Position numbers and translations under genes: made by a program
Part shown: piece after piece, positions 209 through 13,971 of the stretch
Layout: each line of letters starts with the position of its first letter
How positions within the stretch are numbered: the first letter of the stretch is position 1
Origin: a virus
Length of the DNA stretch: 26,300 nucleotides
Strand: one strand, 5' to 3'
Virus record (IMG/VR): IMGVR_UViG_3300025759_000594
Coordinates: 1 to 26,300 of that record
Notes under the pieces: generated by a model
Seen by the model: the letters and a program-made list of their open reading frames with translations, nothing else
Database searches by the model: none
What the model was told of the DNA's origin: nothing

Positions 209-1773
209 TAAAATAACCCCGCTTTGCTTACGCCTGTCGCTGCGGACAGACCTGCTATGCCCAAACCTAGTATAGATTGAGCTGGTGAAACAGATGGTGC
301 AGTTGAACCCGTGATAGTTTGTTGAGACGACGGAGCGCCCTTATAAATATCAGACAAGAAACCCACACGCTGATATGGTTCATAAAGCTGCTGTATTTCG
401 GTTTGACGTTTTGCTTCTATTTCAGCCTGTTGTTGAGCTTGCTGCTGTTTGCCCATGTCAAACAGGAAACCAGCTTCTTTCTGACCCAAACTCTGACCCA
501 GTTCGCTAAGGGCACTCTGACGTAAACCAAGAGCGCCCAGAGCTTCGCCCTGTGCTAAACCGAGCTGACCATATTGGGCACCAAGAGAACCAACCCCCTG
601 ACCTAATCTGCCGACAGCTTCCTGACCGGCTACACCCAATTGACCCGACTGACCGGCAAGTTGACCCATTAACTGGGCGGCATCCATACCGGTAGAAGCT
701 GCTAACTGCTGTATATTCATGCCAGTTTGCGCCAAAGCCTGAGCATTGGCAGACGCCAATTGCTCACTAGATAATCCAAGCTGACCTGCAACCTGTGACG
801 CTTCAATGCCTTGCCTACCAGCAGCTTGGGCAGCCTGAATACCAGCCTGAGCGCCTTGAGCGCCAAGTGTCCCGGTAAGTTTCGCGGCTTCCTGTCCTCT
901 CGCCTGTTCAGCCTCAAAAGCCTGTTGTGCGCGTTGTGCTGCGGTTTCAAAACCAGCTTGACGCATTTGAGCGGCAGTACGGCCTTGCTGTTCCATCACG
1001 TTGCGAGACAATTCGGCTTCCGCAACCGCTTGGCGAGACCCGCCAAACGCGCCAGCGCCAACGGCTTGGGCACCAAGCTGCTGTCGTTGGATTTGACCTG
1101 CACGAGCCACGTCTGCCAGCGCCTGCTGGACTGCCGCATCTTCATAAGCGCTCATAAACGGGCTAATTTGACCGGGTTCAAAGCGTCCAGTGGTGCCTGC
1201 TAGACCAGTAATACCCTGCTGCGCTGATTGTGTTCCAAGAGCGCCAGCCTGCTGCAAAGATTGCGCGGCATTCGCAGCACTTTCAAGCGCCCCTTGTCCA
1301 AGCGCCCCGTATGTACGTGCGCCTTCTGTAGCTGTTCCAAGCTGACCCGCAAGCGTCTCACCGACACCTGCCGCACCAGTAGCTGCGCGATCCGCGACTT
1401 GTTGTCCAATGCCAGCGGCACGACCCATACCGGCTTGTGCCTGACTAACCTGACCCGGAATACCTGCAATCCCAGATTGCATGGCTTCTAGTGCTTGAGT
1501 CTGGTAAGGGGCGGCTTGTTCCATAACACTACCGAGGGAGGTTTGAGCATCACCAAGCGTGTATCCAGCTTGTTCTAGGTATGGCTGATATCCACCAATC
1601 CCCTCGGCTGCAAGTTCCCCGGCAGTAATCTGTAATTGCGACATCTCCGCCACGAGCTGTGGAGGAATGGTTATGCCTTGATCTGCCAATTCCTTTGCAG
1701 ATTGTAAAAGCCCTATTTTATAGGCTTCAATCTCAGGTGATTCGCGGACTATTTGTTCTGTTATTTCAGCCAT
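208..1773 (-). CDS. Putative internal virion (ejected) protein, Ala/Gln/Gly-rich, 521 aa
   Basis: A low-complexity, mostly helical protein rich in Ala, Gln and Gly. Many GQLG-type repeats occupy roughly residues 100-440. A conserved-looking block around residues 205-270 includes PFMSAYEDAAVQQALADVAR and QAVGAGAFGGSRQAV, and a second near 470 reads YEPYQRVGFLSDIYKGAPSSQ. Both blocks recur in proteins of uncultured marine podovirus-like phages, placed next to a large hydrophobic protein as here. The start codon overlaps the previous stop (TAATG) and follows an AGGAGA ribosome site. Position at the end of the tail genes suggests a protein packed in the head and ejected with the DNA, like P22 gp7/gp16/gp20 or T7 gp14-16. 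That role is inference; no lytic transglycosylase domain is visible. Confidence 0.65.
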   Translation of the reverse strand: MAEITEQIVRESPEIEAYKIGLLQSAKELADQGITIPPQLVAEMSQLQITAGELAAEGIGGYQPYLEQAGYTLGDAQTSLGSVMEQAAPYQTQALEAMQSGIAGIPGQVSQAQAGMGRAAGIGQQVADRAATGAAGVGETLAGQLGTATEGARTYGALGQGALESAANAAQSLQQAGALGTQSAQQGITGLAGTTGRFEPGQISPFMSAYEDAAVQQALADVARAGQIQRQQLGAQAVGAGAFGGSRQAVAEAELSRNVMEQQGRTAAQMRQAGFETAAQRAQQAFEAEQARGQEAAKLTGTLGAQGAQAGIQAAQAAGRQGIEASQVAGQLGLSSEQLASANAQALAQTGMNIQQLAASTGMDAAQLMGQLAGQSGQLGVAGQEAVGRLGQGVGSLGAQYGQLGLAQGEALGALGLRQSALSELGQSLGQKEAGFLFDMGKQQQAQQQAEIEAKRQTEIQQLYEPYQRVGFLSDIYKGAPSSQQTITGSTAPSVSPAQSILGLGIAGLSAATGVSKAGLF

Positions 1774-3593
1774 TATGCTGTTCTCCTCGTGCGGCTCTCA
1801 AGATTACGCATGACCGAATACATGTTCTTGATGCCTTTATTAAGGTTCCCATTTCCAGCGCCTCTTACTGCGTCGGTTGTCATTACAAACTCACCCGGCA
1901 TTAACATGGCACGGACACTGTCCTGTCCGGGAATACCTTCATCCGGCATGATCCCACCGTTTCGGCGAGGGAAAATTGCTCCGCCGTCAGCCGCAGTCAC
2001 GTAAGGACGTGCAAATGGGCCACCGGGGGTGCTTTGTTGCAAGTAGGTCGTATTTGGATTGTAGGCGTACCGGGTCGGAACCGAGTAGTTGTTGTAGTCC
2101 GCTGCCCGAATGGTCAAATCGCCTACAGGGCCTACTGAATTATACGAACGTGGGACATAAGTGCCTGTTTCAGGGTCCAAAACTTGGCTACCAAGGTTGC
2201 CTACTAGATACTTACTCGGATCGGCGGCTACAAGGTCTTCGCCAGTGACGGTGTTGCCCTCTTCATCGCGCATTGCGATGTCCAAAGGCTCGGCGGCTAC
2301 TGGTTTAAATGCCCCGGAAGCTGCTGCTATACCTGTACCTAGGGCCGCGACTGGTCCATAAGTACGCAAGAATCCCGGAGCTGCGCTGCTTACAGTGTTC
2401 TGCGCGGCAGTTTGCTGCGCAGTCGTTGCTGCAAGCGGGTTAATACCAGAGGCTTCTAGATACTGCGTCGCGGAGGGGTTTGTGAGTGTTTGACCCGCTT
2501 CTAATGAGCCACCAGACAAGGTGGTTCTTGGGAAGAAGGCGTCGCCCATCGATTCAGTAAAGGTACGACCGCCCGGAGTAAACGCATCTTTGATGCTTTC
2601 AACAAAGGTTGGCGGCTGGGAAAGCGTTGGAGCCGTTTGAACAGCTTCTGTCGCGGCCTGATCCGAAGTTATTGCCGGAGCATTGGCTGCGCCGGATACT
2701 TCTCCTGAAACGGTGCCGTCGGCACCTGTTGCTTGGACAGTCTGCCCTGTCTCGGCTGCAACGTCGGATGCCATCTGTTGGCCTGCCGCGCTTTGACCTT
2801 CGACGCCTGTCGGCGTGTATTTACCGAAGAATCCGGGCTGACCGGCATTTGCTGCACGAGCAGCCTCGCCACCAACCAAGTTGGAGACAGAAGTTTTTGC
2901 GCCAGAAACGGTTTGTCCGAAACGACCCATCGGGTCAGCCAGACCAGCCTTAACGTTCTCAGTAAAACTTCCACTTCCTGTAAACCCTTGGAAAGCTGCG
3001 CCTGTTGCACCTGCTACCAACGCTGACTTCAAAGCGTCCTTGATTGATCCGCCTTTGATCAACGTTCCTATACCAGAACCAAGCGCCGCACCGTAAATAG
3101 GTCCGAGAGGCGTGAACGACAAGGCAATAGGAAGGACCACAGGAGCCACTTTTTTGACCACTTTAACAACTGTTTTAGCGACACTGCTGACGGCTTTAGC
3201 AATGCCTCCAAGTAGCTTCTTTAAGAAAAACTCAGGGAGACCTGTTGTAGGGTTAATATCGTTGGCGTCAGTTCCAACCACGTAAGCTTCTGGGTCTTCT
3301 ACTCCGGCTTCCGTAAGAATATCGTATATACGTTGCTTAATTACTTCATCTTGAAGAAATTGTCGCGGGATGACTAATTCACCCTTGGAAACATGCGCCA
3401 GCATATTATCTTCATTTCGTCCGTATTTAGCCATGCGCTCCGCAAGCGCTGGAAATTGAGCTATCCCCTCATCCCCGTAATCGGTAGGTTTTTCGCCGTA
3501 AACCTCTTCGATTTCGTCATCTTCCATGACAAAATTACCAATACCGCCGTCTGGGACGGTTAATTCATCAATTTTTTGAGTTTCTTCTTCCAT
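1773..3593 (-). CDS. Putative internal virion / DNA-ejection protein with membrane-active segment, 606 aa
   Basis: The N-terminus is acidic (residues 1-45). Residues 65-80 contain LAHVSKGELVIPRQFL. Residues about 122-206 form a long Gly/Ala/Val-rich hydrophobic stretch (KKVAPVVLPIALSFTPLG and onward) able to insert into or cross a membrane. The middle is Ala/Thr/Gln-rich. The C-terminus has DSVRAMLMPGEFVMTTDAVR at about 558-577, which echoes the N-terminal KGELVIPRQF motif. This arrangement recurs in marine phage contigs beside an Ala/Gln-rich partner, as seen here downstream. The best guess is a protein ejected with the genome to form a trans-envelope conduit. A tape-measure role is less likely because tube and chaperone genes are absent. 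Start is TAATG-coupled to the zinc-ribbon gene with GGAG upstream. Confidence 0.65.
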   Translation of the reverse strand: MEEETQKIDELTVPDGGIGNFVMEDDEIEEVYGEKPTDYGDEGIAQFPALAERMAKYGRNEDNMLAHVSKGELVIPRQFLQDEVIKQRIYDILTEAGVEDPEAYVVGTDANDINPTTGLPEFFLKKLLGGIAKAVSSVAKTVVKVVKKVAPVVLPIALSFTPLGPIYGAALGSGIGTLIKGGSIKDALKSALVAGATGAAFQGFTGSGSFTENVKAGLADPMGRFGQTVSGAKTSVSNLVGGEAARAANAGQPGFFGKYTPTGVEGQSAAGQQMASDVAAETGQTVQATGADGTVSGEVSGAANAPAITSDQAATEAVQTAPTLSQPPTFVESIKDAFTPGGRTFTESMGDAFFPRTTLSGGSLEAGQTLTNPSATQYLEASGINPLAATTAQQTAAQNTVSSAAPGFLRTYGPVAALGTGIAAASGAFKPVAAEPLDIAMRDEEGNTVTGEDLVAADPSKYLVGNLGSQVLDPETGTYVPRSYNSVGPVGDLTIRAADYNNYSVPTRYAYNPNTTYLQQSTPGGPFARPYVTAADGGAIFPRRNGGIMPDEGIPGQDSVRAMLMPGEFVMTTDAVRGAGNGNLNKGIKNMYSVMRNLESRTRRTA

Positions 3594-3835: not shown

Positions 3836-4933
3836 TCACAACTGGAGCTGAGATATATTTAATAGCACCGAGGGTGCCGACGGCGCAAAGGCTGATGCCG
3901 TTAATGCGTCCAACAAAACGTTTGTATCGTTCGCCGCCCAATACAGCTCAACGTAATCGGTGGCGGCGAGAGAAATCGTGTAGTTCAACGATATGGGCAA
4001 ATATGCGTTGTTAGTGCTTATTGTCACAGCTCGGGTAGAATCCCCAACATTGGTGCCGTTCTTTCGAAGCCAGAAAAATATGTTTTTAGCACTGGCGCTT
4101 GTCGAAGTTAACTGGATCGTTGCGTCGATCTGGTAATAACCCGCTTCCACCACGTTTAACCGCGACCCGCTGCTCAAGGTAACGCCGTTGGTGACAAGCG
4201 TACTTGTCAGGGCAATTGCGGTTGCCGTGTTGATAGCCCCTAGCGTTTGATCGACTGTAGCGACAAAACTTCCGTAGTCCAAACCAATTGGAACGGTAGG
4301 CCGCACCATGATTTCGCCGTTTGTGGCGTCTACCGTAAGCACCGCAGCGATAACAATCACACCGTTTGGTGCCGTTGGGCGCACGTTAGTAAGCAAACCG
4401 GCTGTTGTGGGGGATGCGTACAAAATATCGCCCACACTCCACGTCTCTGCCCCGGGGCCCGTGGTGTCTATGCCGCGGACTTTCCCATACACAGTTATCG
4501 GGCCAATATCTTGATCCGGCATGTCGTGCGTGGATACACCCACAAAATACAGCTCGTTTGCCGTGTTGTTGGCAATATAGGGCGCAACCTTGATTTCGCC
4601 GTCTACCCCAACAAAACCTACGACTTCGCCATTGTTGATTTGGCTTCCGGTGTCGTTTTTGACCCGCATGTAAGTCTCAAAACCCACCTGCTGAATAACG
4701 CCGTCGCCCATCGTAATGTCGACAGTCTCTTCGTTGAGGTTCCAAGCCATCTGGCCGCGGTCCACGTTCCCCGTGGCTTCCGTCAACGTGATTTCAGTGG
4801 CGCGTAGCGGACCGGGGTTGATGGATTGCTGGAGGTAGACAGAAAACGAGCGAACAACCTCGGTCAAATACCGCTGGTCGTATTGAGCTGGAGGAAGTGG
4901 GAAGTAAGGAACCGGTTGACCGCGGGATGCCAT
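3836..4933 (-). CDS. Tail fibre/spike-like protein with C-terminal C1q-like jelly roll, 365 aa
   Basis: Three parts can be seen. An N-terminal helix-containing segment (residues 1-45, YLTEVVRSFSVYLQQSI) probably docks to the virion. A beta-rich central region (about 70-220) follows, with MRVKNDTGSQINNGEVVGF and GDILYASPTTAGLL, similar to segments seen in cyanophage and other marine phage structural proteins. The last ~140 residues look like a trimeric C1q/TNF-type jelly roll, with GYYQIDATIQL, NIFFWLRKNGT and DYVELYW marking the strands. Such domains usually bind receptors or trimerise fibres. The start is coupled to the gp10-like gene by TGATG with GGAGG upstream. Fibre function is inferred from fold signatures and position. 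Confidence 0.65.
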   Translation of the reverse strand: MASRGQPVPYFPLPPAQYDQRYLTEVVRSFSVYLQQSINPGPLRATEITLTEATGNVDRGQMAWNLNEETVDITMGDGVIQQVGFETYMRVKNDTGSQINNGEVVGFVGVDGEIKVAPYIANNTANELYFVGVSTHDMPDQDIGPITVYGKVRGIDTTGPGAETWSVGDILYASPTTAGLLTNVRPTAPNGVIVIAAVLTVDATNGEIMVRPTVPIGLDYGSFVATVDQTLGAINTATAIALTSTLVTNGVTLSSGSRLNVVEAGYYQIDATIQLTSTSASAKNIFFWLRKNGTNVGDSTRAVTISTNNAYLPISLNYTISLAATDYVELYWAANDTNVLLDALTASAFAPSAPSVLLNISQLQL

Positions 4934-7023
4934 CAGCGCCTCCCATCGGGTCGCATGTCATACCGCAAACTACCCAATCGCCACGCAACGCCAGTTTCGT
5001 CGGATTGCACCTGAATGCTAAACTGACGACCCCGCAAACGCAGGTTGATCTGTTCAGTGGTATCGTTGACCTGATTAGTTACGGTTTTGAGATAGTTACC
5101 GTTGCTGTAATTCCGTACACGCGTCGTAATATCAAGCAAAGGCACCGGTGCGCTGGAGTTCCTGAACCCAACATCCGGGATCAAGCGGCTCAAGAAAGTG
5201 AATTGTTGCCCGTCGCCCATGTCCATCGGACTGGAGCTGACATACGCCGTAATGGCTGCCGCCGGAGACACACTGCCATCATCAAAACCAAACTCTTGGT
5301 TGTACAAGAAGTTGTCCGGCGATGCTGCAATCGGATATTGCTCAATACCGCGGTCAATCCAGCAAGTACGCGACAGGGTGCCGTAATACCAAACCTGCTC
5401 CAGCGTGTTGTAAATCACATAACGGTCGTTTTCACTGCTGCTTGCAGACGGATAGAACCACCAAATCTCATTGTTTTCAGAGTTTACAGCGGCAGTAACC
5501 TTTTCAAGTTGGCCGACATTGATGTCGTCAAAGACGTAATCCCGTACCGAACACGGGATTTTCTGCACCGCGCCGTTATACATGTAGAACTCGGAGATAC
5601 CCATCCAAAATACCTGATCCTCGACAGGAACCGCGGTCAGCGGCCCTGCAATCGTGGTGTTTTCAGAAATAAGCTGAATACCAAACGTAAATGGGGCTCC
5701 CAAATACTGCATCGCGTACATTGATTCATCAGTAAAGACGATAATCTGTTGGCGTGTCTCTACCGCAGTTATAATCTCAGAACCTGATCCAAGGCGTAAA
5801 TCACCTGCCGTGGTCAGCGCGGTGCTTTCCCACTCTGTCAGGCTTTCTTGGTCGGAAAACCGGATCAAAAGAGGGTCTTGTACGCCGGGATTGTTTTGCG
5901 GATCGCAACCAAACGCAATGACGTGACGGTCACGATCAGATACCAAAAGCTGCTTGGCAACCGTGGGTGTGTAGTTGGCACCAGCCAAACTGTCTAAACT
6001 GACACCGCGAGTACTTGTTCCACCGGTTTTGTCCCAATAGTACAAACCTCCGTCGCGGACGTTAAATAACAAGTCTTCCCCGAAATTGTCGTGGCTCCAA
6101 ATACGAAGCGTCGCCCCTTGTGCCAAAAGACTCGATGCCGAACCCCATGCGCCTCGAGACCATGATCCCGCGCCCCAGCCCGTACCAAAAACCGTGGTGT
6201 CAAGACCTGTGTTAATTTGATACGCGCCGACAACGGATGCTCCTCCGTTGCCGCTATCACTAGACGTAGCAAAAACGGGTGTTTCATCTAAACCACCGGA
6301 TACGGTAATAGATGCAATAGTAGAAACAGTGCGAGCCGTAATGTAGTAAGTGTTGGTATCCTGAACATGAACGACTTGGTATTGTTGGTTTAATATGTCG
6401 GCAGTAATTTGGTCACCCAGCGTGACTGCCCCGGAAAAAGTTACAAAGTCGTTTTCGTTACAACCGTGGGCTGTGTCATTTACCGTAATAGTGGCGCAGG
6501 TTACTGTATCGCCGCTAGTGTGCGCAGCAGCGGTCGTGTCATATTGTGCGCGTTCGCAACCTATTAAGTCGTTGCCAGATACACTTGCGTAAAGGATAAT
6601 CTCCGAATTAATCTTTACATAGCCGGTGCTTGGAAAGCCAGTCGTCGAGGACAGCGTGATGGTTGTATCGTCAACGGCAACGTTGGCACCCAATGTGTTG
6701 GCAGATGCGGAAAAAGTAATAGCCCCCGCAGAAGTCGTATCGCGAATAGGTGTAATGTCAAAATAAGCTCCACCCTCGTTAATGTAGTATTTTAAATGCG
6801 TTCCAACACCAAGGTATTGATTACCTTCTAGCGCAACCCAAGGATGAAGGGCGCGGCAAGTACCTAAAAAATTAGTAGATGACATTTTTTGCCACCCACC
6901 AATTTTTTCAGGGAATCCGTAACGGAAACGTATTTTGTCTCCATCATACCAACCGCCTTCGTTGGTGTACGAGGTTATCTCTCGGTTAATTCCCGGCCTG
7001 AACTGTAACTTGGTAAGTGGCAT
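4933..7023 (-). CDS. Putative tail hub/nozzle protein (P22 gp10-like 'packaged DNA stabilisation' type), 696 aa
   Basis: The N-terminus reads LQFRPGINREITSYTNEGG and then GDKIRFRYGFPEKIGGWQK, a signature of a large family in podovirus-like marine phages that I associate with gp10-type stabilisation/nozzle proteins. The rest is beta-rich with a possible propeller: DRHVIAFGCDPQ, SEIITAVETRQQIIVFTD, DQVFWMGISEFYMYNG, NNEIWWFYPS and RYVIYNTLEQVWYYG look like repeated blade strands between residues 360 and 560. An inserted Ig-like or irregular section lies around 95-250. Length fits a tail hub rather than a capsid protein. AAAGGA precedes the ATG. It would close the tail end of the portal channel. 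The exact family assignment is tentative. Confidence 0.6.
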   Translation of the reverse strand: MPLTKLQFRPGINREITSYTNEGGWYDGDKIRFRYGFPEKIGGWQKMSSTNFLGTCRALHPWVALEGNQYLGVGTHLKYYINEGGAYFDITPIRDTTSAGAITFSASANTLGANVAVDDTTITLSSTTGFPSTGYVKINSEIILYASVSGNDLIGCERAQYDTTAAAHTSGDTVTCATITVNDTAHGCNENDFVTFSGAVTLGDQITADILNQQYQVVHVQDTNTYYITARTVSTIASITVSGGLDETPVFATSSDSGNGGASVVGAYQINTGLDTTVFGTGWGAGSWSRGAWGSASSLLAQGATLRIWSHDNFGEDLLFNVRDGGLYYWDKTGGTSTRGVSLDSLAGANYTPTVAKQLLVSDRDRHVIAFGCDPQNNPGVQDPLLIRFSDQESLTEWESTALTTAGDLRLGSGSEIITAVETRQQIIVFTDESMYAMQYLGAPFTFGIQLISENTTIAGPLTAVPVEDQVFWMGISEFYMYNGAVQKIPCSVRDYVFDDINVGQLEKVTAAVNSENNEIWWFYPSASSSENDRYVIYNTLEQVWYYGTLSRTCWIDRGIEQYPIAASPDNFLYNQEFGFDDGSVSPAAAITAYVSSSPMDMGDGQQFTFLSRLIPDVGFRNSSAPVPLLDITTRVRNYSNGNYLKTVTNQVNDTTEQINLRLRGRQFSIQVQSDETGVAWRLGSLRYDMRPDGRR

Positions 7024-8265: not shown

Positions 8266-10236
8266 CTATAAAAATGTAATTTGAATGTTTTTTGTTAAAC
8301 CAACACGATTCTCAAAATGTATTACACCTGATTGAATCCCGATATTCATAGACCCGTTAGGACCATCTGTGCCAGTTCTCGCTGCGTTGGCAATGGTGAC
8401 GTTTGTGCTTATTGATGTTTGAATGCTTCCGGCTAATGAAGTGCCAACGTCATAATAGAATAATGCTGATGATGTGTTTCCGGGGGTCGTGCTGTCACCG
8501 CCAAATGTAAAGATGCAAAATCCACCGTTTCGGGGAGGTGTGACGGGAGAATAGGAATCATCAGCAATTGTTACCTGTTTTGTTTCAAACCGATTTGATA
8601 CAGTGATATCGCCTGAAAGTACATTTACATCTCCAGTAGAATCATCAATTTGAAATAAAACCGGATTTCCTGCGCCTAAATTACCATAGAAATTTATACT
8701 TCCATTGTCTGAGCCTAAATCAAAGCCACCTTCTGAATTTTGAAACCTTATTCTTATCGATGCTGTTGAATTTGTGTCTGATATTGTAAGTTGATTTGAT
8801 AGTGTGCCTGTGTTGGATGTATCGCCAATATGGGTTTGCCCTAGATAGTTAGTAGCACCGTCGGCGTAAAGCCCTCCGGTTACTAAATCCAGATCGCCAT
8901 TAGGTATGTCTACGTTTTGTGATGAGTCGACTACTAGCCCTTGCGTCATTGTTCCGCTGGAGTTTGCAGTCCATAGTTCTAGTGTCCCCGGTATTTGATT
9001 TGTCGCAATCGTGCCTTCTGTGCCACTTTTTATATAAGCAACTTGGGTGTTTAAGTCAGTTCCATCATCACCTGCAAAAATTAAAAAGCCTATAGCATCT
9101 CCGCTAGTGATGGCTGAGTACGAGCCAATCGAAGCACTTCGACTTTTACCCAGTACCACACTCGTACCTGATGAATCGGCACTAAACCTAGTAGTCGCTA
9201 AACCACTGCTTGCGTCCGTTCCGTGATTTTGTATCTCCTTAATAGCACCACCCACCCCAATGCTTGAGGCGTTTCCTACTAAAATACTGCCACCAGTATT
9301 TATTATATCACCAGCCGATAAAGTGAGATCGCCACTCGATACAGTGAGATCGCCTGTGGATAGAGTTACATCGCCATCTTTGAGTAAAACGCTTTCAACT
9401 GTTACACCAGTGTCTGCGGTGGTTTCGTTTATTGTGTTGGATGTCAAAGCCTGTCCGTTGTCAATAATCAGGTTGTTAGCACCGGAGGTGTTACCATTAG
9501 CTAAAATTTCTGACAGCGTATCAATTGTTCCAACTTGGCTATCTACATAAGCCTTAATAGATTGTTGCGTAGCCAGTTTTGTGGCGCTATCTGACGCCAT
9601 GTTGTCTTCATCTAGTATGCCATCAACAGTTGTGGTGGCATTAATTGTCAAGTTTGTGTTACCAGTAAGCGTAGTAAATGTGCCTGCCTTTGGTGTAGTG
9701 CCGCCAATGACCGCTTCGACCGTACCATCATTAATGTCGGCTGTGCCTGCGCCAAGGGTTGGGGTGTAGAGTTCGGTAACTCTAAGTTTGGTAAATACGT
9801 CAGTGACCGTGGCACTTGCGCCACCGCCATCAAATTTTAGGACAACGTCGTAACCAGCCGGAATTTCAAAATCGTTGCTGGCGCTGTAAGTGCCTTGGAA
9901 AACAAAGACGGAGCGACTGCCTGACAGGCTGTTTCGGAAGAAAACAATCTTTTCAGCGTCATTCGGGACAAGCTGGACATACGCGTTAGCGCCTAGATCG
10001 CCACCATCAACAAACTCAATCCACTTATTTCGGCCATCTGATGTCGCACCGTCATCAATAGATAAACTGTTAGGAGAACCTGAAGTTCCTGCCGAGGACA
10101 GCGTTAAGCTGAGAACTCCGTTGATGGCTTGATCCAGAATATCAAAGTTTATGTTTGTGGTATCCCCCCAAGTACCCGACTGTTCACCGGTCGCGGGTTT
10201 TTCAATACCTAAATTAACTGTATAAGTGCTTGGCAT
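8266..10236 (-). CDS. Tail fibre protein, 656 aa
   Basis: The N-terminus TYTVNLGIEKPATGEQSGTW followed by GDTTNINFDILDQAI is a widespread virion-attachment module in marine phages. Residues 60-155 form a beta-rich block ending in YDVVLKFDGGGASATVTDVF. Residues about 160-235 carry fibre-like repeats and DEDNMASDSATKLATQQSIK, a common coiled-coil or triple-helix linker motif. Then come GDLTLS-type repeats (about 290-320) and a long Ser/Thr/Gly-rich beta shaft. The C-terminal ~90 residues (from RNGGFCIFTFGGDS) look like a separate globular tip. This protein probably recognises the host surface as a trimer. GAGGA lies upstream of ATG. The distal half is more AT-rich than the N-terminal half, consistent with exchange of the receptor-binding end. 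Confidence 0.8.
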   Translation of the reverse strand: MPSTYTVNLGIEKPATGEQSGTWGDTTNINFDILDQAINGVLSLTLSSAGTSGSPNSLSIDDGATSDGRNKWIEFVDGGDLGANAYVQLVPNDAEKIVFFRNSLSGSRSVFVFQGTYSASNDFEIPAGYDVVLKFDGGGASATVTDVFTKLRVTELYTPTLGAGTADINDGTVEAVIGGTTPKAGTFTTLTGNTNLTINATTTVDGILDEDNMASDSATKLATQQSIKAYVDSQVGTIDTLSEILANGNTSGANNLIIDNGQALTSNTINETTADTGVTVESVLLKDGDVTLSTGDLTVSSGDLTLSAGDIINTGGSILVGNASSIGVGGAIKEIQNHGTDASSGLATTRFSADSSGTSVVLGKSRSASIGSYSAITSGDAIGFLIFAGDDGTDLNTQVAYIKSGTEGTIATNQIPGTLELWTANSSGTMTQGLVVDSSQNVDIPNGDLDLVTGGLYADGATNYLGQTHIGDTSNTGTLSNQLTISDTNSTASIRIRFQNSEGGFDLGSDNGSINFYGNLGAGNPVLFQIDDSTGDVNVLSGDITVSNRFETKQVTIADDSYSPVTPPRNGGFCIFTFGGDSTTPGNTSSALFYYDVGTSLAGSIQTSISTNVTIANAARTGTDGPNGSMNIGIQSGVIHFENRVGLTKNIQITFL

Positions 10237-10248
10237 TTCTCTATTCCT

Positions 10249-11412
10249 CTACGCTGCAATTCGCGCCCAATTAGCATTCTGTTCTGGCGCCGCCTCTGCC
10301 CATGAAGGGCTTTGACTGGGTGCTTCCTCAGACCACGAAGGGCTTTGGTTTGGTACTTCCTCCGACCATGTTGCTTCTTGACTTGGGTCAACGTTAATAT
10401 AGCCCGGATTTTGATCCGGGGCAATTCTTCCGTAAACCAGTACTTTTCCAACCTGACCGGCGGCGCTTACGCCTATTATATTTATGATAGCGCCTGCATT
10501 TGCAGTAACACTACCAACTTGTCCTTCTCCAGCGACACCACTTACGCTTATAGTTTGACCGTTAGTGACCACTACAGAACCGACATTACCTGTTGCCGCA
10601 ATACCTGTTACGGGTATATTAGCTTCCCCGTAGACAGATACATCGCCAACTTGCCCACTTGCCGCAATACCCGTCGGGCTCACGTCAGCAGCAGCAGCAA
10701 CCGTAACAGATCCTACATTTGTAGTGCCCGAAAGTCCTGTGACCGGTACATTCGCCGAGGTTTCAATACTAACGCTGCCAACTTCGCCTGTTCCAGCCAA
10801 TCCGTTGGGGTAGACATTGGCACCAGCGTTAATGCTGACGGAATCGACTTGGCCAGTGCCCGAAAGTCCTGTGACCGATACATTCGCCGAGGTTTCAATA
10901 CTAACGCTGCCAACTTCGCCTGTTCCAGCATTTCCAGTAAGATTGACGTTTGCATCTGCGGTGACCGTAGCAGAGCCAACTTCGCCTGTTCCAGCATTTC
11001 CAGTAAGATTGACGTTTGCATCTGCGGTGACCGTAGCAGAGCCAACTTCGCCTGTTCCAGCCAATCCGTTGGGGTAGACATTGGCGCCAGCGTTAATGCT
11101 GACGGAATCGACTTGGCCAGTACCGGAAACACCGGTAACGTCTACATTGGCGTTGCCTATGATGCTGGCTTCGCCTATTTGGCCGGTGCCAGCAATACCT
11201 GTAACCGAAACGTTGGCTTCTGCAACTATTGTTACACTACCAACGCTACCTGTCGCTGCAATCCCAGTAACCGGCGCATTTGCTTCCGCAACAACCGTTA
11301 CAGAGCCTACGTCGCCTGTCGCACCAGCAGTAGGAACGGAGCCTTCGCCCCAACCAAGCTGGCCCCACGTCCCACGGCCCCAGCCGGTTAATGGGACGAC
11401 GACGTCGGTCAT
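10249..11412 (-). CDS. Tandem-repeat virion structural protein with W-rich ends, 387 aa
   Basis: Residues 10-24 (GWGRGTWGQLGWGEG) form a tryptophan/glycine-rich head that I have seen at the start of marine phage structural proteins. Residues 35-320 are thirteen consecutive 22-residue repeats with the consensus VGSVxVxAxANVxVTGxAGTGQ, predicted to be all beta and possibly a beta-roll or solenoid. A degenerate fourteenth follows. The last 44 residues are four 11-residue units, each with one Trp (PSWSEEAP type). The start is fused to the upstream stop (TAATG). It sits between a 150-aa structural protein and the tail fibre, so a tail appendage, whisker or surface fibre is likely. Function is not established. 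Confidence 0.7.
   Translation of the reverse strand: MTDVVVPLTGWGRGTWGQLGWGEGSVPTAGATGDVGSVTVVAEANAPVTGIAATGSVGSVTIVAEANVSVTGIAGTGQIGEASIIGNANVDVTGVSGTGQVDSVSINAGANVYPNGLAGTGEVGSATVTADANVNLTGNAGTGEVGSATVTADANVNLTGNAGTGEVGSVSIETSANVSVTGLSGTGQVDSVSINAGANVYPNGLAGTGEVGSVSIETSANVPVTGLSGTTNVGSVTVAAAADVSPTGIAASGQVGDVSVYGEANIPVTGIAATGNVGSVVVTNGQTISVSGVAGEGQVGSVTANAGAIINIIGVSAAGQVGKVLVYGRIAPDQNPGYINVDPSQEATWSEEVPNQSPSWSEEAPSQSPSWAEAAPEQNANWARIAA
10252..10383 (-). repeat. 4 x 33-bp tandem repeat encoding 11-aa Trp units
   Basis: Four 33-bp units at the 3' end of the repeat-protein gene encode 11-residue blocks of the form xQSPSWSEEAP. Tryptophan recurs exactly every 11 residues. The middle two units are the most alike at DNA level (gaagggcttt shared on the + strand); the outer two are diverged. 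Confidence 0.85.
10453..11310 (-). repeat. 13 x 66-bp in-frame tandem repeat array
   Basis: Thirteen 66-bp units encode the 22-residue repeats of the 387-aa protein. Units at 10981-11046 and 10915-10980 are identical base for base. Units at 11047-11112 and 10783-10848 differ at one base, and units at 10849-10914 and 10717-10782 differ only at a few. This points to recent duplication or gene conversion inside the array rather than selection on protein sequence alone. Outer units are more diverged. Confidence 0.9.
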
Positions 11413-11864
11413 TACGCTATCCGAATAATTGCGTTACTTGCGTCAGCAGTCGGAAAAACGATAGTGAAGTCACCGGCGGTGGAGGTCTTGTCTCCACCGA
11501 AATCCAAAACCACAACAGACGGGTTGGTTACCGAAATAGAGGTGGTGTTTGGGGTAGTGTTATAAATCAACGCGCCGCGAGCAGTAATGGTTGCAGTCGT
11601 GAAAGTTTCGTCTGCAAAATCAGTGAAAGCCGTCGTACCAGATGTCGTCGGGTTTACGTTAGTCAGAGCCTGACCGCCCGCCGAATAACCTGTACCGCTG
11701 GTTTCGTCCGTTGCTGAATACGCAGTCGTCGACGCATCTAGCGTCGCAGAACTCGTATAAAGAGCAATGTTAAAAGTGTCGCCTGTAGAGGCATCAAAAT
11801 CGTGTACACCATAAAGAAGCTCGTTCTTAAAGGATGTACACATGTAGTTTCCTGAAAAAGCCAT
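11412..11864 (-). CDS. Small virion structural protein, beta-rich, 150 aa
   Basis: The N-terminus is SGNYMCTSFKNELLYGVHDF, followed by FNIALYTSSATLDASTTAYS. It is a beta-rich, Thr/Ser-rich, almost Lys-free protein ending in TIVFPTADASNAIIRIA. I recall the FKxELLxGxHxF start followed by an ALYTSSATL strand from short structural proteins next to tail genes in many environmental phages, where the role is not known. SD GGAGA precedes the ATG, and its stop overlaps the start of the repeat protein. It is probably a tail or baseplate component made together with the repeat protein. Confidence 0.65.
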   Translation of the reverse strand: MAFSGNYMCTSFKNELLYGVHDFDASTGDTFNIALYTSSATLDASTTAYSATDETSGTGYSAGGQALTNVNPTTSGTTAFTDFADETFTTATITARGALIYNTTPNTTSISVTNPSVVVLDFGGDKTSTAGDFTIVFPTADASNAIIRIA

Positions 11865-11865
11865 G

Positions 11866-12165
11866 TCACAGTCTCCTTATTTGTTCAGCAAGCTCCTTGT
11901 GGCCTGCAAGGGTTAATGCGTTGTACACCGTTGTTCTATCACATTTTATCGCTTCACGCATGTAAAATTCCAAAATATTAACTAGTCGTTTACGAAAGGC
12001 ATGTGCTTGCGCCTTAATAGCAGGGTCTGCGTCGTCGCTGATTGAAATAATTTTGTTAGCAGCTCTTTCCGCGAGTTCCTCTGGAGTAAACCCACGGCCA
12101 CTGGTGGTATGTACTTCCACCTGAAATCCGTGGTTAATTTTCATATCTAATGCCGGAAAACTCAT
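11866..12165 (-). CDS. Hypothetical small helical protein, 99 aa
   Basis: A short beta segment (GFQVEVHTTSGRGFTPEELA) leads into a helical body (AERAANKIISISDDADPAIK and FRKRLVNILEFYMREAIKCD) and ends TVYNALTLAGHKELAEQIRR. This layout, with the HTT-x-x-RG-x-TPEELAERA motif, recurs in marine phages near head-tail connector genes; function unknown. The start is ATGA-coupled to the SU10-like adaptor gene. Position suggests a connector- or tail-assembly factor, but nothing in the sequence proves it. Confidence 0.6.
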   Translation of the reverse strand: MSFPALDMKINHGFQVEVHTTSGRGFTPEELAERAANKIISISDDADPAIKAQAHAFRKRLVNILEFYMREAIKCDRTTVYNALTLAGHKELAEQIRRL

Positions 12166-12812
12166 TGTTTTGGCCTAATTACCATTCCGGTGCGATATTC
12201 GTCAGTCACTTCCTTCGATTCGCCGAACATCTTCATACCGGCGATTGCTTCCGCAAAACGCTTCTCGTATTGTTGCAATATATCTGGCTCACCCTTCATG
12301 TAGATGTATGCTTCGATCAAGCTTCCGTACAAAAGAGCTATTTGAGCATTTTCACTCAGCCAAGTCGTCCCGCTACCGCCAGACTCAGTCAAACTGAGAG
12401 GACGATAGAAGTAATGAAGCTCAACGGCGTAGTTATCGTTCGGAGTAGGCCCCAAAATAAAGTTATCAATGTCGAAAACGGCATAATACCGTGGATTTCC
12501 AGTCGTAGACGCGTTTGGGTTAAAAGATTGGACAAAATCTGGATCTTTAAAATCCAAAAACACTTGATTTGACGAGGAATCCGTAAAACTTAACGAAAAA
12601 GGGGCTAAAAAGTCGCTAGGGCAAGCTAAATATTTGTTCGATGATGACATCGTACCACTTACGTTCTTACGGAACAGGCTTAACTGAACATTTTTGAGGA
12701 TACGCTCCTCTGCCTGAACGATAAACACCGGGATATTAGTCACAAAAGACGTTTCGTCGTACTGCGTATAGTCTTCAATGGCCTGAGTTAGCTGATCGTA
12801 TGTAAAGCTCAT
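12162..12812 (-). CDS. Putative head-tail adaptor (SU10 adaptor-like), 216 aa
   Basis: The helical N-terminus contains FVTNIPVFIVQAEERILKNV, followed by a beta domain with FRKNVSGTMSS, YLACPSDFLAPFSLSF, FLDFKDPDFVQSFNP and PRYYAVFDIDNFILGPTPND. A C-terminal helix pair includes ENAQIALLYGSLIEAYIYMK. This helix/beta/helix order and the PSDFL and PRYYAxFD motifs match the adaptor family I associate with podovirus SU10 and many marine phages. Such proteins form a ring below the portal. Coupled by ATGA on both sides, to the 100-aa gene before it and the 99-aa gene after it. Family named from memory, not by search. Confidence 0.6.
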   Translation of the reverse strand: MSFTYDQLTQAIEDYTQYDETSFVTNIPVFIVQAEERILKNVQLSLFRKNVSGTMSSSNKYLACPSDFLAPFSLSFTDSSSNQVFLDFKDPDFVQSFNPNASTTGNPRYYAVFDIDNFILGPTPNDNYAVELHYFYRPLSLTESGGSGTTWLSENAQIALLYGSLIEAYIYMKGEPDILQQYEKRFAEAIAGMKMFGESKEVTDEYRTGMVIRPKQ

Positions 12813-13111
12813 GTCACCACCGTAACGTTACCAACCTTACCAAACGCCTGAAGGGGCAAAAGGTTTGGGTTTTCGACCAGAGGCACACCAACAAACACAT
12901 CTAGCGGCTCGACACGGTCTGGTCTTGCATTCTCAAGGGCTTCTGGGTCAACAACTTTGCGGAAAGGCCCCAACTGAGGATGTTTTGGTTCATACTCGTC
13001 AGGTCCAACAAGCGCACCAGTCCATTCCCGCTTCATCAGTCGGTATGGGTATCGGAACCCGGAACGGTCCGAGATTGCCCATGAGTCTTTACCTACAGCA
13101 AATTTCGCCAT
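12809..13111 (-). CDS. Hypothetical structural protein, 100 aa
   Basis: The sequence contains WAISDRSGFRYPYRLMKREW, then GPDEYEPKHPQLGP and a Pro-rich C-terminal half (LENARPDRVEPLDVF, LLPLQAFG). The SDRSGFRYPY start with EPKHPQ recurs in small proteins between head-tail adaptor genes of environmental phages; no function is known. It starts immediately after the gp4-like gene stop (TAA then ATG) and overlaps the SU10-like gene by ATGA. Context suggests a connector or tail accessory part. Confidence 0.6.
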   Translation of the reverse strand: MAKFAVGKDSWAISDRSGFRYPYRLMKREWTGALVGPDEYEPKHPQLGPFRKVVDPEALENARPDRVEPLDVFVGVPLVENPNLLPLQAFGKVGNVTVVT

Positions 13112-13780
13112 TTACCCCGCCCTATAGTATTCGTATCTCGGAACAACATTGAATGACGCCCGATCACGGTCTTCCGTAGCTGCCCGTTCAAATTCCTCTT
13201 CATACACTGCTTTTAGCATCTGAACACGGTTTGGGGAGCGTTTCAACGCAATATAATAGGCTAAACCGGCTGCTAAACAAGGGTAAAACCTGAACGGCAT
13301 GTCCATGGTGTTGGTGTAAATATCCGCATCATCCATGCGAGTAAGCGCATCGTAAATGATAACGTCCGTGGTATTCTCTGGAACTGGCCAAATCTTTAAA
13401 TTTGGAGTTACTTGGCGGTCAAGAAAGAACTGATTTGGACGTCCTTGTGTTGTTTTGTTCGGAATATTAATGTAATCATCGCGGCTCAGGCGCAATAATG
13501 CGTAATCCGTTCCGTCTCGCCGACAAACAACCGACAAAATGTCGATCACATCATTACCCAGATCGTATTCTCCATCGCCAACTACCAGTGTTACCGTGCG
13601 TTGCTTGATGGTCCATTGATTTAAGCCTCGATTTGCCCAGTCTGCCAATAATAAGTTAAGCGAACGCTTTGCAGTTTTTAAATCGTAGCCAGTACGCACC
13701 TCAAGACCACACCGTTCAAAAGCTTCCTCGATGTATTCAGCGACATCTAAATCAAAATCTTTGCTTCCGGAAGTGGCCAT
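13112..13780 (-). CDS. Putative head-tail adaptor, P22 gp4-like, 222 aa
   Basis: Residues about 12-60 read EYIEEAFERCGLEVRTGYDL, then AKRSLNLLLADWANRGLNQW, then a beta stretch (TVTLVVGDGEYDLGNDVIDI). This helix, helix, beta pattern resembles the gp4-type tail accessory factor that attaches to a P22-type portal. The C-terminal half has NLKIWPVPENTTDVIIYDAL and MPFRFYPCLAAGLAYYIALK. I chose ATG at 13780, with AAAGGA eight bases upstream, over the GTG one codon earlier. It is the first gene after the small-protein cluster and precedes the other connector genes. Confidence in a connector role is moderate. Confidence 0.6.
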   Translation of the reverse strand: MATSGSKDFDLDVAEYIEEAFERCGLEVRTGYDLKTAKRSLNLLLADWANRGLNQWTIKQRTVTLVVGDGEYDLGNDVIDILSVVCRRDGTDYALLRLSRDDYINIPNKTTQGRPNQFFLDRQVTPNLKIWPVPENTTDVIIYDALTRMDDADIYTNTMDMPFRFYPCLAAGLAYYIALKRSPNRVQMLKAVYEEEFERAATEDRDRASFNVVPRYEYYRAG

Positions 13781-13791
13781 CACTTTATCCT

Positions 13792-13971
13792 TTACGCATT
13801 ACGAACGGCACATTTTTTCTTACCACCCGATTTACGGCTAGCAGCACCAACAGAACCCCCGGTTTTCATTTTTTTCACCATACCGCCGCCGCGCATTTTC
13901 TTAACCATACCGCCGCCGCGCATTTTCTTAACCATACCGCCGCCGCGCATTTTCTTAGGTTTCATCGCCAT
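13792..13971 (-). CDS. Small basic repeat protein (MRGGGMVKK repeats), 59 aa
   Basis: Start MAMKPKK, then three 9-residue repeats MRGGGMVKK, and a Lys/Gly-rich end (MKTGGSVGAASRKSGGKKK) with one Cys. The ATG at 13971 has a good ribosome site (AGGAGA, 7 bases away) and overlaps the previous gene by 17 bases. Net charge is very positive, with no acidic residues. Such peptides probably bind DNA or RNA or another virion protein, but I know no tested function. Reading frame and SD support the gene. Confidence 0.7.
   Translation of the reverse strand: MAMKPKKMRGGGMVKKMRGGGMVKKMRGGGMVKKMKTGGSVGAASRKSGGKKKCAVRNA
13870..13950 (-). repeat. 3 x 27-bp tandem repeat
   Basis: Three adjacent 27-bp units encode MRGGGMVKK. 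The units at 13897-13923 and 13924-13950 are identical; the third at 13870-13896 differs only near one end, where the sequence passes into the unique tail of the gene. Confidence 0.9.

What the first reader, a model, noticed from the sequence alone, without database searches (positions are those of the whole stretch)
10249..11412. Virion protein built from thirteen 22-aa repeats, with signs of recent array change
Adjacent 66-bp units are identical and distant units differ at one or few bases while the outer ones are diverged, the sign of recent duplication or gene conversion. Repeat number may vary between strains and change the length of a virion appendage. The consensus VGSVxVxAxANVxVTGxAGTGQ has a regular beta pattern and could form a solenoid shaft.
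Basis: partly seen in the sequence, partly recalled or inferred. Interest (0 to 1): 0.55.

Follow-up and report, generated by a model that had tools for sequence, protein, structure and literature searches.

The report
Variable-length repeat arm of phage tails
A virus of aquatic bacteria encodes a protein that is probably a stackable arm on its short tail, whose number of building blocks differs widely between related viruses, and two other small tail proteins of these viruses usually end in half a building block, as if made to clip onto it.

Summary
In detail: window 10249-11412 (-) encodes 387 aa with thirteen gap-free 22-aa units (aa 35-320). Units 5/6 are identical in DNA, 4/8 98%, 7/9 90%. 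Close relatives have ten units in matching order, so the window shows a net gain of three (units 6-8). In viruses chosen by their nozzle gene, arrays of 3 to 32 units were found (fewer than 3 were not counted); pairs with nozzles at least 97% identical agree (7 of 7), pairs at 80-90% differ by up to 25. AlphaFold2 suggests a beta-solenoid; no Pfam, PHROGs or PDB sequence match.

New: (1) the N-terminal cap is a three-fold hydrophobic motif (W-x4-W-x4-W, or F/L/I at that spacing). The nozzle carries W-x4-W-x4-W in a low-confidence loop; phage SU10's nozzle docks a trimeric fibre with three Trp. (2) Two small proteins, encoded beside the adaptors (A) and the nozzle (C), usually end in a lone half-unit (strict pattern 96 of 128 A, 52 of 61 C, 6 of 14,128 other ORFs). 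The window's A has it; its C homologue does not.

Best reading: a tail-attached solenoid arm of adjustable length. Virion location and docking are inferred.

The parts
10249..11412 (-). repeat protein B, 387 aa: cap, 13 x 22-aa units, C-tail
10453..11310 (-). array of 13 units (aa 35-320)
   Evidence: AF2 pLDDT 77-94 by 10-residue block here
10783..10980 (-). units 6-8, the net gain relative to ten-unit relatives (6 = copy of 5, 8 = copy of 4, 7 = near copy of 9)
11350..11382 (-). N-cap motif W11-x4-W16-x4-W21
   Evidence: mostly inside the pLDDT<50 stretch 10-18
10252..10452 (-). C-tail (aa 321-387): half unit VGKVLVYG then 11-aa aromatic repeats, end NWARIAA
12809..13111 (-). protein A, 100 aa (phrog_28581; zinc-ribbon-like by eye from homologues, Cys lost here), between two adaptor genes
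12812..12835 (-). lone half-unit VGNVTVVT at the C-terminus of A
13112..13783 (-). SU10_adaptor family protein 1
   Evidence: E 2.5e-15
12162..12812 (-). SU10_adaptor family protein 2
   Evidence: E 1.6e-22
11412..11864 (-). phrog_644 protein directly upstream of B
   Evidence: E 2e-19
8266..10236 (-). fibre-like gene with STYT..GTWGDTTNINF N-domain, directly downstream of B
   Evidence: the motif follows B in 140 of 199 cases; 16 more carry a variant by eye
4933..7023 (-). nozzle protein
   Evidence: PDB hits 9nwi_Y 2.7e-15 and 8zkk_O; model vs SU10 nozzle 7z47_G E 1.7e-20
6145..6177 (-). nozzle W283-x4-W288-x4-W293 loop
   Evidence: the three Trp columns are invariant in 37 aligned nozzles; residues 275-304 pLDDT<50 between two strands
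3836..4933 (-). protein C homologue, 365 aa, long form without the lone half-unit

Best explanation
The gene encodes a structural protein of a short-tailed phage: a beta-solenoid arm of 22 residues per coil, attached at the tail near the adaptor and nozzle. Shown: strict 22-aa periodicity, unit gain in whole coils, wide unit-number differences among relatives, a conserved place among tail genes, a three-fold hydrophobic cap like that of the nozzle loop, lone half-units at the ends of two small tail protein families. Predicted: the solenoid fold. Inferred: presence in the virion; that the cap is a docking star for a trimeric fibre, as in SU10's nozzle; that the lone half-units of A and C pair with open edges of the solenoid; that the number of coils sets the arm's length (about 0.48 nm per coil, recalled, so about 6 nm for 13 coils and 15 nm for 32); that copies change by recombination between in-phase units.
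For: Phase: no linker between 1809 of 1966 successive recognised units. Fold: AF2 array blocks at pLDDT 77-94, two long strands and often a short third per unit. Tail context: adaptors, nozzle, fibre-like gene right after B; repeat protein near the adaptor also in CRP-901 and DSL-LC04. Cap: of 196 distinct complete repeat proteins 89 have W-x4-W-x4-W, 18 W-x6-W-x4-W, 80 F/L/I at the same spacing, 1 (CRP-901 gp53) has the Trp motif elsewhere, 8 were left over, 7 of them near variants by eye and 1 an A protein. Same rule for both groups: F-type in the first 60 residues in 80 of 89 repeat proteins without a Trp cap against 8 of 1719 other ORFs; anchored at the first Met 48 of 89 against 1 of 1719. 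Of 89 other ORFs with W-x4-W-x4-W, 85 are nozzle homologues. In the window the motif occurs only in B and the nozzle among 36 CDS, 8439 aa. 67 of 73 distinct nozzles have it; 4 more have F or Y at one position. Half-unit tags: 96 of 128 A, 52 of 61 C, 6 of 14,128 others, 2 of these 6 C-like; on the plus strand 5 of 5995 others. Natural fusion: CRP-901 gp53 = A domain + repeats + W-x4-W-x4-W. Length differences.
Against: No virion proteomics or image was found for any member. The window's own C homologue lacks the half-unit. ct7L0027 has a six-unit B but an A without the half-unit; HTVC027P's A also lacks it. SU10's three Trp are spaced 8 and 10, not 5 and 5, and lie late in the chain (839-857 of 1006). 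HTVC023P's A and B genes lie about 10 kb apart. 26 of 80 nozzle-selected loci showed no repeat ORF of 3 or more units; whether contig ends explain this was not checked. No complex could be modelled. Foldseek gave no PDB match for the solenoid at E<=0.001.
Confidence: 0.5

Rival explanations
1. B is a head fibre or head decoration, not a tail part.
For: B lies in one block with capsid genes; phrog_644 next to it has no known function.
Against: Near neighbours are adaptors, nozzle and fibre-like genes; in the window the cap motif is shared with the nozzle only; in CRP-901 the A domain and repeats are one protein directly after the tail adaptor.
Confidence: 0.15
2. B is a curli-like or other non-virion adhesin made in the infected cell.
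For: The curli subunit CsgA (8c50) is the best VIA-align match, Z 27.5, rmsd 8.5, 325 aligned; HTVC023P-type phages carry curli genes (PMC9599517, passages).
Against: No Pfam match at E<=1, so none to a curlin family (HMMER's filters drop many weak matches); the paper's curli genes are clusters with CsgF and CsgG, while B sits among structural genes; the Foldseek match to CsgA is only E 0.21.
Confidence: 0.08
3. The Trp-rich cap is a glycan-binding patch and B is a receptor-binding protein.
For: Trp patches commonly bind sugars (recalled); B precedes a fibre-like gene.
Against: In 80 of 196 proteins the same spacing is held by F/L/I, which suits hydrophobic docking better; the same motif is nearly invariant in the nozzle, whereas receptor-binding sites usually vary (recalled).
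Confidence: 0.12
4. Array length is neutral: units are gained and lost by recombination without effect on function, and the lone half-units are only remnants of such arrays.
For: Most arrays show old, diverged units and counts differ freely; some A proteins carry extra units.
Against: The lone half-unit ends the protein in most members of two separate families and almost nowhere else; ten units are held by 61 of 81 loci in the first scan (a sample biased to close relatives and with repeated contigs).
Confidence: 0.2
5. The near-identical units are an assembly artefact.
For: The array is known here only from assembled virus contigs.
Against: A second contig carries the same 13 units, 99.99% over 10,208 bp; the identical tracts are only 75-87 bp. 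The two contigs may stem from one sample, so this is not fully independent.
Confidence: 0.05

Closest known systems
SU10 nozzle gp17 fibre dock loop (PMC9509320)
   Same: A nozzle beta-propeller protein with three Trp in a loop that docks a trimeric short tail fibre; the window's nozzle has a matching fold and an invariant three-Trp loop.
   Different: Spacing 5/5 instead of 8/10, other position in the chain; in this group the motif also caps a separate repeat protein.
HTVC023P/HTVC027P, CRP-901 and DSL-LC04 phages
   Same: Related portal and nozzle genes and repeat proteins annotated as hypothetical (gp68, gp68, gp53, WJZ48131.1).
   Different: Fewer or more divergent units; CRP-901 joins the A domain and the repeats; HTVC027P has three Trp modules and two recognised units.
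CsgA curli beta-solenoid
   Same: Predicted coil architecture; best Z among the 78 chains compared.
   Different: No curlin sequence match; B sits among tail genes.
Phage tailspike and fibre beta-helices (P22 tailspike among the structural matches)
   Same: Beta-helical virion appendage, if B is in the virion.
   Different: Short regular 22-aa coils with whole-unit copy change; no PDB sequence match.

Membership tests
beta-solenoid repeat protein | constant coil length with alternating conserved hydrophobic positions | tested here: met
   22 aa, no linker in 1809 of 1966 steps; column profile
beta-solenoid repeat protein | stacked coils in three dimensions | tested here: inconclusive
   AF2 model only, pLDDT 77.6, pTM 0.68; PDB matches are largely solenoids but Foldseek E>=0.19
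curli subunit CsgA/B | curlin repeat sequence family | tested here: not met
   no Pfam family at E<=1
curli subunit CsgA/B | csgG/csgF secretion genes nearby | not tested
   20 window proteins and isolates' proteins were scanned with Pfam, not all
SU10-type trimeric-fibre dock | nozzle beta-propeller fold | tested here: met
   window 4933-7023:
SU10-type trimeric-fibre dock | three Trp in a loop | tested here: met
   nozzle W283/288/293, loop 275-304; spacing differs from SU10
SU10-type trimeric-fibre dock | binds the N-termini of a trimeric fibre | not testable with these tools
   no multimer modelling
trimeric fibre shaft | three chains per shaft | not testable with these tools
   monomer prediction only
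HTVC023P-type short-tailed phage structural module | related portal and adaptor | tested here: met
   portal 49-51% identical to HTVC027P, DSL-LC04, HTVC023P; SU10_adaptor Pfam in the window

The most novel reading that the evidence does not exclude
Phages of this group build a snap-on tail arm: one protein is a beta-solenoid of freely variable coil number with a three-fold hydrophobic docking cap, and two other tail proteins (one encoded at the adaptors, one at the nozzle) each end in half a coil that completes the solenoid's open edge, so that arms of any length fit the same sockets and length can change by unit recombination without redesign of the interface.
Probability: 0.3. Interest if true: 0.78.

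Novelty: new variant of a known kind. Interest (0 to 1): 0.6.

Why it matters
If true, phages in this lineage tune the reach of a tail appendage by adding or removing whole coils while the sockets stay fixed. That would link a simple recombination process to adsorption geometry, give a function to a family annotated as hypothetical in the isolates seen here, and offer a natural design for modular, length-adjustable protein arms. It also gives specific peptides (the half-coil ends of A and C, the three-fold caps) whose binding can be tested directly.

Tried and rejected
Sequence families: no Pfam or PHROGs match for the repeat protein; no PDB sequence match with the protein or its alignment. 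Foldseek and VIA-align list many solenoids, no convincing homologue; in the viral model library one uncharacterised phage protein at E 1.7e-8. Host: one genome hit, a contig of an Oceanicoccus MAG, too little to name a host. Curli was considered and set aside (see rivals). A strict A-B co-occurrence rule was rejected: ct7L0027 breaks it. Whether lone half-units match the flavour of their own B array was tested: A tags with L or A before the G (6 of 123) come from loci with more L/A-starting units (148 of 20,000 permutations reach the difference), but the sequences are related and two of the six do not fit; for C only one of 42 tags is of that kind. For the C-tail I suspected a fixed count of three aromatics; counts vary. 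My first control for the F-type cap (5 of 1740) was anchored at the first Met while the test was not; it was redone with equal rules, and those figures are used.

Literature: 10 searches. Passages of PMC9599517, PMC10149686 and PMC10611076, and passages plus sections 12-13 of PMC9509320, were seen; of the rest only the listings. What I saw does not describe the repeat protein, but no search was made for lone half-unit tags, so I do not claim they are unpublished.

Sampling limits: one search kept 80 of 222 relatives, 80 of 284, 68 of 68, 80 of 115, 80 of at least 600. Several contigs were fetched twice under different locus ids, so repeat proteins, A, C and caps are counted as distinct proteins; the 53 loci of the length comparison may repeat a contig. 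ORFs with fewer than 3 recognised units were not counted as repeat ORFs. ORFs cut by contig ends were dropped where 'complete' is said. Motif patterns were chosen after seeing the data, and statistics treat related sequences as separate. Structure alignments: 48 repeat proteins and 37 of the 73 distinct nozzles found plus variants.

Full report
What is there. The window is a 26.3-kb virus record with its structural genes on the minus strand. ORF 10249-11412 encodes 387 aa: a 34-aa N-terminal part with GWGRGTWGQLGWGEG, thirteen 22-aa units, and a 67-aa tail that starts like another unit (VGKVLVYG) and goes on with 11-aa aromatic repeats. Units 5 and 6 are identical in DNA, 4 and 8 98%, 7 and 9 90%.

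History of the array. In ten-unit relatives L041 and L044 the window's units match in order: units 1-5 to 1-5, 10 to 7, 11 to 8, 13 to 10, and more weakly 12 to 9 (59-63%) and 9 to 6 (62%); units 4 and 8 both match position 4, and 5 and 6 both match position 5. The simplest reading is a net gain of three units (6, 7, 8) in the middle by events that join units in phase. Longer aligned blocks around the gene are about 72-83% identical to L041, L043 and L044, while the copied tracts are 98.7-100% identical to each other, so the gain looks much younger than the split. Such young copies are rare: 3 of 217 distinct arrays, this one included.

Unit number in relatives. Scans of IMG/VR with four repeat-protein queries plus three isolate loci gave 217 distinct repeat ORFs with at least 3 recognised units; complete ones have 3-32 units, with 1809 of 1966 steps between units free of any linker. 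To avoid selecting by the repeats, I fetched 80 loci by the nozzle protein; 54 hold a repeat ORF, with 3-32 units. Among 53 loci with nozzle and complete repeat protein, pairs with nozzles at least 97% identical agree in 7 of 7 cases, at 90-97% in 2 of 9 (largest difference 3), at 80-90% in 18 of 40 (largest 25: L302 with 7 and L306 with 32 at 83.6%).

Fold. AlphaFold2 with 48 sequences: mean pLDDT 77.6, pTM 0.68, array blocks 77-94, two long strands and often a short third per unit; residues 10-18 of the cap and most of the C-tail are below 50. Structural matches are mostly beta-solenoids and beta-helices: CsgA Z 27.5 at rmsd 8.5, P22 tailspike Z 18.3, an antifreeze beta-helix Z 18.1, but no Foldseek PDB match reaches E 0.001. 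So a solenoid is likely; a known relative is not shown.

Place in the tail. Upstream in transcription lie two SU10_adaptor proteins with the 100-aa protein A between them, a 99-aa protein and a phrog_644 protein. Of 199 repeat ORFs with a gene called right after them, 140 are followed by a gene with the fibre-like N-domain motif; of the other 59, by eye, 16 have a variant of that domain, 41 a short zinc-ribbon gene, and 2 are A-type proteins followed by an adaptor-like gene. The 696-aa protein at 4933-7023 is a nozzle: PDB sequence hits 9nwi_Y (Pa223 tail) and 8zkk_O (VP1 nozzle), and its model matches the SU10 nozzle at E 1.7e-20, Z 23.4. The portal is 49-51% identical to those of HTVC027P, DSL-LC04 and HTVC023P.

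The three-fold cap. With equal rules the F-type is in the first 60 residues of 80 of 89 repeat proteins lacking a Trp cap and of 8 of 1719 other ORFs; anchored at the first Met, 48 of 89 and 1 of 1719. Shuffles of the 37 distinct F caps match 0.68 times on average against 37 observed, of the 31 distinct W caps 0.24 against 31 (patterns were chosen after seeing the data). In the window the motif occurs twice in 36 CDS: in the repeat protein and in the nozzle. Among other ORFs of the repeat loci it occurs in 89, of which 85 are nozzle homologues. It is in 67 of 73 distinct nozzles; of the six without it, four have F or Y at one of the three positions and two an insertion. In an alignment of 37 nozzles the three Trp columns are invariant. 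The nozzle model places the motif in residues 275-304, pLDDT below 50, between two strands. In SU10 the nozzle's Trp839, 847 and 857 form a three-fold star that holds a trimeric short tail fibre (PMC9509320, sections 12-13; residues checked). The analogy suggests docking of a trimer; spacing and position differ, so homology of the loop is not claimed.

Lone half-units. Protein A (12809-13111) ends VGNVTVVT, the first strand of a unit. By a loose pattern 114 of 126 distinct complete A proteins end so, 29 of 34 from nozzle-selected loci. The gene right after the nozzle, C, mostly about 98 aa, ends in a half-unit such as ATGSVGTVTV in 59 of 61 by a loose pattern. With one strict pattern over 14,317 distinct complete ORFs of both strands: 96 of 128 A, 52 of 61 C, 6 of 14,128 others, of which two look like longer C proteins; on the plus strand alone 5 of 5995 others. 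The window's own C homologue is a 365-aa form without it, as are L292 and L359. In CRP-901 one protein joins the A domain, repeats and a terminal W-x4-W-x4-W. Against a fixed pairing: ct7L0027 has a six-unit repeat protein and an A without the tag, and HTVC027P's A lacks it. Pag-Yong1 has an A without the tag and no repeat ORF in the stretch read; Octadecabacter virus DB2 and the stretch read of Caulobacter phage RW show no repeat ORF.

Interpretation. The likeliest function is a tail-attached beta-solenoid arm whose coil number varies. The three-fold cap would dock a trimeric fibre, and the half-units of A and C would seat the solenoid by strand pairing. The first sentence rests on several lines of evidence; the docking parts are inference. 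Whether length matters to the phage is untested.

Noticed in passing
window 13792-13971 (-), tandem repeat 13867-13957: A 59-aa ORF with RGGGMVKKM repeats, encoded by a 27-bp tandem repeat (3.4 copies, 96% matches), lies between the first adaptor gene and the next gene.
   Followed up: partly
window 13112-13783 and 12162-12812: Two genes of the SU10 adaptor family flank protein A; short-tailed phages are usually described with one adaptor (recalled).
   Followed up: no
L370 19419-20384 (HTVC027P gp68): Repeat protein with three W-x4-W-x4-W modules and two recognised units.
   Followed up: partly
loci such as L225, L226, L259: A short zinc-ribbon gene overlaps the end of the repeat gene by a few bases in 41 of the 199 cases examined, in place of the fibre-like gene.
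   Followed up: no
window 10252-10452 and homologues: C-tail aromatics are mostly spaced 11: (11,11) in 84 of 196, (11) in 65, four steps of 11 in 18.
   Followed up: partly
window 11412-11864: The phrog_644 protein ends SNAIIRIA, loosely like the repeat protein's end NWARIAA.
   Followed up: no
window 1773-3593: 606-aa protein with segments MLAHVSKGELVIP and MLMPGEFVM and weak matches to tape-measure and endolysin families.
   Followed up: no
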